From: Cerasicoccus sp. TK19100 | GTDB lineage: Bacteria > Verrucomicrobiota > Verrucomicrobiia > Opitutales > Cerasicoccaceae | DNA length: 64,000 bases | Assembly: GCF_027257155.1 (NCBI RefSeq) | Contig: NZ_JAPWDU010000002.1 | Location: 434,001-498,000, forward strand | Direction of reading: 5' to 3' | Shown here: positions 10,746-57,563 of the stretch, piece after piece | Position numbering within the stretch: position 1 is the first letter of the stretch | Layout: each line of letters begins with the position of its first letter | Notes under the pieces: generated by a model | Seen by the model: the letters and a program-made list of their open reading frames with translations, nothing else | What the model was told of the DNA's origin: nothing | The model's database searches: none | Made by a program: the position numbers and the translations under genes

Positions 10746-10941
10746 AAGTATCGCCGACTGCGCGACCAAGCGTCGCCGACTGTAGCTCGGAGTGTCGCCG
10801 ACACTTCCCCGGAGCGTCGCCGACGCTTCAAGCGAAACCAGGTGCTGTGTTGGTCACAAACAAGCTGGTATGTTGGTCGAACACACGGGCGTCTTTTGGT
10901 CTCAACCAAGCCGTGCTTTGCTCCAAATCCCGGGCCGCGCT
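10746..10941. repeat. degenerate hairpin-repeat array 1 (22-23 bp period)
   Basis: A non-coding array of short imperfect hairpins. The word TCGCCGAC starts at 10751, 10773, 10795 and 10817, exactly 22 bases apart. After one longer unit, TTGGTC starts at 10850, 10873 and 10896, with a diverged TTGCTC-like copy at about 10919, each 23 bases apart. Arms flank the core and co-vary: AGTGTC-gcc-GACACT in one unit and AGCGTC-gcc-GACGCT in the next; TTGGT-ctc-AACCAA later. Two similar 23-bp arrays occur at 19502 and 57403. It lies between the MYG1 gene start and the HEPN gene. Confidence 0.75.
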
Positions 10942-19501: not shown

Positions 19502-19708
19502 AAACGATTACTATCGTTTTTCCAAAAGGATCCCCATCGTTTTGGAAAAAGCATTAGGATCGTTTTCAACAACACATTACCATCTGTTGCGCCAACACAT
19601 TAGGATCTGTTGAGGCATCACATCAGGATGTGTTGACCAAACACATGGGAATGTCTCGCTCTAACACATCTGGTTGTGTTGGCCCGAAGCATTGCCAAAG
19701 TTTTCGTC
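19502..19708. repeat. degenerate hairpin-repeat array 2 (nine 23-bp units)
   Basis: Nine consecutive units of exactly 23 bases fill the space between two convergent genes and touch the stop codon of the YdeI gene. Each unit has a 7-base arm, a 4-base loop, a complementary 7-base arm and a 5-base spacer. Unit 1 pairs perfectly (AAACGAT-tact-ATCGTTT). Units 4-8 have a different arm (AACACAT with ATGTGTT-like), usually with one mismatch; units 3, 7 and 9 pair less well. Neighbouring arms also pair across the spacers (TGTTG-cgc-CAACA), so several alternative folds exist. No coding potential and no CRISPR-like spacers. Confidence 0.85.
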
Positions 19709-57287: not shown

Positions 57288-57402
57288 CAGGCTATAAGAA
57301 GGGCAAAAGTGGCAAAACGTAGAATTAAACATTGATCACCATCAATGCTTAGGGTGTCCTCTATCTGCTCATGGCTGAGCCAGCGCTCGGCTATTCCCCA
57401 AA

Positions 57403-57563
57403 GGACGGAGGTTATGTTGCTGCGACAACACCACTTATGTTGCCTCAACAACAGTGGCTATGTCGACGTAACAACACTACTGTTGTTGGACAAACAACAG
57501 TAGTGGCTTTTTGAAAACACAGCAGTAGGCTTTTCCATAACAACAGAATAAGCTTTCTTATTT
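57403..57563. repeat. degenerate hairpin-repeat array 3 (seven 23-bp units)
   Basis: Units start exactly 23 bases apart at 57403, 57426, 57449, 57472, 57495, 57518 and 57541. A CAACA-type arm begins most units and a TGTTG- or GGCTTTT-type arm lies near the middle; one unit pairs perfectly over 6 bp (AACAAC-actact-GTTGTT). In later units the right arm turns to CTTTT and the next left arm to AAAAC, which keeps pairing across the unit border. A separate perfect hairpin (CATTGAT-cacc-ATCAATG) lies at 57330-57347. It lies between convergent genes, as array 2 does. Confidence 0.8.

What the first reader, a model, noticed from the sequence alone, without database searches (positions are those of the whole stretch)
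19502..19708. Nine-unit 23-bp array of alternating, partly covarying hairpins between convergent genes
Nine units of exactly 23 bases, each 7-base arm, 4-base loop, 7-base arm and 5-base spacer. The arm changes along the array (AAACGAT/ATCGTTT at the left; AACACAT/ATGTGTT-like at the right) while pairing is partly kept, usually with one mismatch. Arms also pair with their neighbours across the spacers, so several alternative folds exist. It is not a CRISPR (no conserved repeat plus unique spacer) and not a coding repeat. Two comparable arrays lie elsewhere in this window, which suggests a genome-wide family, perhaps with a role in transcription termination, mRNA ends or nucleoid structure. I know of no named element with this design.
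Basis: partly seen in the sequence, partly recalled or inferred. Interest (0 to 1): 0.72.

Follow-up and report, generated by a model that had tools for sequence, protein, structure and literature searches.

The report
Species-specific dispersed arrays of 23-bp units
A marine bacterium (Cerasicoccus) carries about 40 scattered, rigidly 23-base-periodic DNA arrays between its genes; sister species have arrays at some of the same places but spell them in their own way, which looks more like protein-binding DNA arrays evolving in concert than like RNA hairpins.

Summary
In detail: nine 23-bp units at 19502-19708, far beyond chance. It belongs to a genome-wide family: at least 37 arrays here in two sub-families, at least 13 in Cerasicoccus frondis, a few in C. 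maritimus, none in a fourth congener, and no convincing match elsewhere in the order or in GTDB. Spacing is exactly 23 in 367 of 377 junctions. Arrays are polar mosaics; some copies are 91-94% identical at unrelated loci. An array beside lipB/lipA occurs in three species, yet 40 of 42 arrays are most similar to arrays of their own genome: concerted evolution with species-specific half-sites (ACAACA- versus ACAACC-). The hairpin/covariation reading fails: real arrays fold no better than chimeras of same-position units, and arms do not covary. Membership in GTAG-tagged, RAYT-linked REPs fails. Best reading: a new BIME/STAR-like dispersed mosaic repeat made of tandem two-fold-symmetric sites (core TTK-N3-MAA) for an unidentified DNA-binding protein. 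The family and its DNA-level evolution are shown; the protein is inferred.

The parts
19502..19708 (.). The finding: 9-unit, 23-bp-periodic array of sub-family 1 (cores CGAT / ACAT)
   Evidence: sub-family copies
19502..19570 (.). Outer run of three AAA..TTT units (the longer outer run marks the polar end)
19571..19685 (.). Inner run of five AACA..TGTT-type units
19686..19708 (.). Closing outer-type unit, diverged (GAAGCATTGCCAAAGTTT)
57401..57556 (.). Second array in the window, sub-family 2 (cores GCC / ACAGTRG / ATAGC), 7 units
   Evidence: L066
57557..57586 (-). Conserved external end of the second array (reverse complement of GCCAACCGAAGCAACTGAGCCAAAATAAG)
10834..10920 (.). Possible third, decayed array of four weak units beside another repeat (22-bp GTCGCCGAC type)
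   Evidence: (L064); weak

Best explanation
This is one copy of a Cerasicoccus-specific dispersed intergenic repeat of about 130-230 bp: a polar, mosaic array of mostly 6-10 units of exactly 23 bp, which spreads to new loci and is homogenised within each genome. Each unit boundary is a two-fold-symmetric site with the core TTK-N3-MAA (TTT-N3-AAA in outer units, TTG-N3-CAA in inner units) next to variable half-site words that are used in both orientations and differ systematically between species. Shown: the family, the fixed spacing, the polarity and mosaic make-up, the shared position in three species, the within-genome homogenisation, and no sign of selection for a particular fold. Inferred: that the arrays act as double-stranded DNA, as tandem binding sites for an unidentified symmetric DNA-binding protein that tracks the species-specific words, either in chromosome organisation or as the substrate of the enzyme that copies them.
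For: Family and rarity elsewhere. Spacing of 23 in 367 of 377 junctions although 18-30 was allowed. Columns flanking the spacer are the most conserved (T17 97%, T18 95%, A1 92%, A2 95%), and columns 19/23 match as T..A 154 or G..C 88 against 50 mixed. Half-site words used in both orientations. Copies 91-94% identical at unrelated loci. Array of the same polarity beside lipB/lipA in three species while 40 of 42 arrays have their nearest relative in their own genome. ACAAC followed by A in 98 of 103 half-sites here and by C in 59 of 62 in C. frondis. No fold selection.
Against: No binding protein was identified. Position-specific similarity comes partly from common descent, so conservation of the core is not pure proof of binding. 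The change of words could come from copying alone, without a co-evolving protein. The mechanism of dispersal is unknown; no clean empty site was found.
Confidence: 0.45

Rival explanations
1. REP/BIME-type elements: non-autonomous units mobilised by a RAYT (Y1, IS200-like) transposase that recognises single-stranded hairpins.
For: Y1_Tnp counts follow array counts in the genus (8, 3, 2, 0 in G000, G001, G003, G002). Four Y1 genes have an array within about 3 kb. Dispersal, mosaic make-up and species specificity are BIME-like (PMC2817692).
Against: The Y1 genes examined are flanked by their own, different inverted repeats, unrelated to the arrays. The GTAG tag is absent from sub-family 1 (4 GTAG/CTAC in 86 units) and lies mid-unit in sub-family 2. 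Hairpin arms are not maintained. In L114 the array cuts the Y1 gene rather than flanking it.
Confidence: 0.17
2. Miniature transposon: the units are binding sites of a DDE-type or other transposase encoded elsewhere, as the repeated sites in the ends of Tn7- or Mu-like elements.
For: A conserved end (GCCAACCGAAGCAACTGAGCCAAAATAGCGTTTCC) and near-identical copies at unrelated loci. Repeated protein sites at fixed spacing would fit.
Against: The other end is variable and no terminal inverted repeats or target duplications could be defined. Host genes only between two inverted arrays 15 kb apart. Array positions are partly old.
Confidence: 0.15
3. RNA-level element: tandem hairpins in transcripts that act in termination, 3'-end protection or processing.
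For: Arrays fold better than dinucleotide shuffles (z -4.6, -5.9). Gene 3' ends face arrays somewhat more often than 5' ends do (17 convergent against 6 divergent).
Against: Chimeric arrays of same-position units fold equally well. No arm covariation. No G.T excess over A.C in sub-family 1. Few terminator-like matches. No Rfam match.
Confidence: 0.12
4. Functionless minisatellite DNA, expanded by slippage and exchanged by recombination between copies.
For: Copies differ by whole units; arrays lie at several synteny breaks (L114).
Against: Units within one array are more diverse than same-position units of different arrays, so arrays are not local expansions. Single-base indels are nearly absent. 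An array is kept at one locus in three species.
Confidence: 0.11

Closest known systems
Bacterial interspersed mosaic elements (BIME-2 and large REP clusters; PMC2817692, PMC8266576)
   Same: Intergenic, dispersed, mosaic, species-specific arrays of imperfectly palindromic units; known BIMEs bind proteins (gyrase, IHF, Pol I).
   Different: No GTAG tag at a hairpin base, units of 18 bp at rigid 23-bp period, no kept hairpin arms, not flanked by the genome's RAYT genes, conserved one-sided end.
STAR elements of Staphylococcus (PMC3532100)
   Same: Intergenic arrays of short repeats with a conserved start signature and variable unit number; autonomous in each species; function unknown.
   Different: STAR has 14-bp direct repeats with 40-44-bp spacers that stay locus-specific; here units are symmetric, spaced by 5 bp, and homogenised across loci of a genome.
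CRISPR arrays
   Same: Tandem partly palindromic units with a leader-like conserved end.
   Different: No constant repeat, no unique spacers of guide length.
Eukaryotic satellite DNA (general knowledge, analogy only)
   Same: Fixed periodicity, within-genome homogenisation, different spelling in sister species.
   Different: Short arrays dispersed in gene gaps of a bacterium.

Membership tests
REP / BIME (GTAG type) | Conserved GTAG-type tetranucleotide at the 5' foot of each palindrome | tested here: not met
   Sub-family 1: 4 GTAG/CTAC in 86 units; sub-family 2: 94 in 333 units, mostly at unit columns 6-11, i.e. in the middle
REP / BIME (GTAG type) | Palindrome kept by compensatory change | tested here: not met
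   Arms not more complementary than arms swapped at the same position; real arrays fold no better than chimeras
REP / BIME (GTAG type) | Cognate RAYT gene flanked by the same repeats | tested here: not met
   RAYT flanks carry other repeats; one array cuts a RAYT gene in C. maritimus
REP / BIME (GTAG type) | Intergenic, dispersed, multi-copy, species-specific | tested here: met
CRISPR | Constant repeats separated by unique spacers of similar length | tested here: not met
   5-bp spacers, variable units
MITE / miniature transposon | Terminal inverted repeats and target-site duplication | tested here: inconclusive
   One conserved end, variable other end; empty site rebuilt
Intrinsic terminator arrays | G+C-rich stem followed by T run more often than in shuffles | tested here: not met
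   In four loci 1, 2, 0, 2 matches against shuffle means 0.7, 0.5, 1.0, 0.8; the one at the finding lies outside the array
Known structured RNA (Rfam) | Match to a covariance model at gathering score | tested here: not met
Operator-like protein-binding array | Symmetric core at fixed spacing | tested here: met
Operator-like protein-binding array | A protein that binds it specifically | not testable with these tools
   needs pull-down, DAP-seq or ChIP

The most novel reading that the evidence does not exclude
A bacterial counterpart of fast-evolving satellite or operator arrays: a dedicated chromosomal DNA-binding protein recognises hundreds of half-sites in about 40 arrays per genome, and protein and half-site vocabulary co-evolve so fast that sister species spell arrays at the same genomic position differently.
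Probability: 0.25. Interest if true: 0.85.

Novelty: new variant of a known kind. Interest (0 to 1): 0.57.

Why it matters
Concerted evolution of dispersed arrays at a shared position, with a whole half-site vocabulary replaced between sister species, is satellite-like behaviour that I did not find described for bacteria in the papers searched. It implies either an efficient conversion or copying process acting on short, divergent repeats, or a sequence-specific partner that drags hundreds of sites with it. Either can be tested in culturable species (Cerasicoccus frondis, C. maritimus). It also shows that repeats which fold well against dinucleotide shuffles need not be RNA structures: a chimera control reversed the first impression.

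Tried and rejected
RNA structure: fold z-scores against dinucleotide shuffles looked strong but vanished against same-position chimeras (one search was a failed run); within-unit, across-spacer and enclosing pairings were all tested. Naive column-pair covariation gave high z values that reflect unit types and shared ancestry, so it was not used. RAYT mobilisation: suggested by counts, not upheld by the flanks. Larger transposon between two inverted arrays: only host genes. Replication polarity: no clear link of array polarity to local GC skew (21 of 50 positive). Phage or plasmid origin: no hits. Rfam: none. Wider distribution: hits in Treponema and Deinococcales MAGs are near-perfect simple tandem repeats; pattern hits in the rest of the order look like AT-rich chance, as in the reversed-pattern control. 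Empty site at the L062 locus: array present only in this species, but the gap was rebuilt, so no clean insertion site. The whole genome was not available as a file, so arrays were counted from searches and fetched stretches, and the counts are minima.

Full report
Observation. The window lies at 434001-498000 of contig 2 of a 5.07-Mb genome. The genus is Cerasicoccus, inferred from its same-genus relatives: G001 has the contig lengths of C. frondis NBRC 105381 and G003 one of C. maritimus NBRC 105382. The array at 19502-19708 has nine units of exactly 23 bases. The best 8-unit sum of paired arm bases is 47 of 56, against at most 33 in 60 dinucleotide shuffles of the window. It sits between an RHS/fn3 gene and a DUF1801/OmdA gene that face each other. 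A second clear array lies at 57401-57556 and a weak one at 10834-10920.

Family. DNA and pattern searches show at least 37 arrays in this genome: 10 of sub-family 1 (cores CGAT/ACAT, the finding) and about 27 of sub-family 2 (cores GCC, ACAGTRG, ATAGC), by my count. A three-unit edge pattern (AAMA-N10-TKTT-N5) with up to three mismatches hits 143 places, against none for the reversed control. Counts with two mismatches are 105, 56, 3 and 0 in G000, G001, G003 and G002; other genomes of the order show only AT-rich matches like those of the control. A strict pattern over 84,980 GTDB species finds only Cerasicoccus, apart from simple tandem repeats in two Treponema MAGs and one Deinococcales MAG. 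Viral contigs, phages and plasmids give none.

Anatomy. Outer units have AAA..TTT edges and inner units AACA..TGTT edges. Arrays are polar: one end of many sub-family-2 copies carries GCCAACCGAAGCAACTGAGCCAAAATAGCGTTTCC, the other end varies. Copies differ by whole units and are mosaics; L080, L081 and L161 are 91-94% identical over 217-248 bp at unrelated loci. Over 377 junctions found with spacing free between 18 and 30, 367 are 23 (the arrays were first found with a fixed phase, which favours 23 to some degree). The most conserved columns flank the 5-bp spacer: T17 97%, T18 95%, A1 92%, A2 95%, with columns 19 and 23 matched T..A 154 and G..C 88 against 50 mixed. Half-site words occur as left halves and, reverse-complemented, as right halves.

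Is it an RNA structure? Arrays fold better than dinucleotide shuffles (z -4.6 and -5.9). But if each unit is replaced by the same-position unit of another array of its group, the chimeras fold as well or better (mean z of the real arrays +0.10, +0.60 and +0.89 on the + strand). Left and right arms of a unit, arms across a spacer, and enclosing arms are not more complementary than arms swapped at the same position, and in several groups less so; that deficit may reflect linked half-site types. Sub-family 1 has no excess of G.T over A.C mismatches (52 to 44); sub-family 2 has one (282 to 161), which comes at least partly from systematic columns. Terminator-like matches are few. Gene context, by a heuristic ORF caller, is 17 convergent, 24 tandem and 6 divergent. 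So hairpins look like a by-product of the vocabulary, not what selection keeps.

Evolution. Beside lipB and lipA, this genome, C. frondis and C. maritimus all carry an array of the same polarity; in C. frondis only a short 5' piece of lipA follows the array, and in C. maritimus 2.4 kb separate the array from lipB. The fourth congener has none beside its lipB. Yet 40 of 42 arrays have their closest relative in their own genome, and these orthologous arrays are less alike than paralogues within this genome. The half-site ACAAC continues with A in 98 of 103 cases here and with C in 59 of 62 in C. frondis; C. maritimus adds the word GTACAGC. At L073/L116 the flank is 93% identical between species while inner units have each species' spelling. 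At the L062 locus the array is present only here. The arrays are therefore dispersed, gained and lost, and homogenised within each genome.

Interpretation. Rigid spacing, a symmetric core, reuse of half-sites in both orientations and genome-wide change of one word fit tandem binding sites for a symmetric DNA-binding protein, or for an enzyme that copies the arrays. Shown: family, spacing, symmetry, polarity, concerted evolution, no selection for folding. Inferred: the protein and its role. RAYT mobilisation was taken seriously because Y1 counts follow array counts (8, 3, 2, 0) and four Y1 genes have an array within about 3 kb, but the Y1 genes examined carry their own, different repeats. In C. 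maritimus an array sits where a Y1 gene that has 308 codons in C. frondis is cut off; arrays also lie at other synteny breaks, so they may mark rearrangement points.

Known kinds. BIMEs (PMC2817692, PMC8266576) share dispersal, mosaic make-up and species specificity but rest on GTAG-tagged hairpins and RAYTs, which are not met here. Opitutus terrae, a verrucomicrobial relative, was reported rich in GTAG REPs (PMC3733652), so REPs proper occur in relatives and this is something beside them. STAR elements (PMC3532100) share a start signature and the intergenic array form, but keep locus-specific spacers. I found no description of such arrays in Cerasicoccus. I file it as a new variant of dispersed mosaic intergenic repeats.

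Noticed in passing
L119:2767-3037 (C. frondis) and L118:2959-3022 (C. maritimus): Possibly a third array type with AAAACCCACYRGTGTTTT-like units near 23-bp period, distinct in sequence from both sub-families.
   Followed up: no
L130, L126, L132 (Treponema MAGs): Near-perfect tandem arrays of 23-bp palindrome-bearing units (for example GTGTTAGACTAACACTAGCCCGC), apparently an independent parallel to the finding.
   Followed up: partly
L114:3418-3607 (C. maritimus): An array lies exactly at the point where a Y1 (IS200-like) transposase gene, intact with 308 codons in C. frondis (L113:3979-4905), is cut off.
   Followed up: partly
L103, L104, L105, L107, L110, L111: Several different RAYT genes, each flanked by its own long inverted repeats; L110 has a regular 48-bp BIME-like cluster.
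   Followed up: partly
L070, L093, L113 flanks: Another dispersed repeat, TTCGTGTCCTTCGTGGTTAA, lies next to several arrays, as if gaps that hold one repeat collect others.
   Followed up: no
upstream of L061, L074, L079, L081, L085 arrays: A degenerate 18-bp tandem repeat (CCAACCGAAGCAACTGAG) continues outside the conserved array end.
   Followed up: no
L073 and L116; L067 and L117: Synteny between species holds on only one side of the array, so arrays coincide with rearrangement breakpoints.
   Followed up: partly
10769-10829: A 22-bp repeat (AGCGTCGCCGACACTTCCCCGG) next to the weak third array; looks like a separate repeat family.
   Followed up: no
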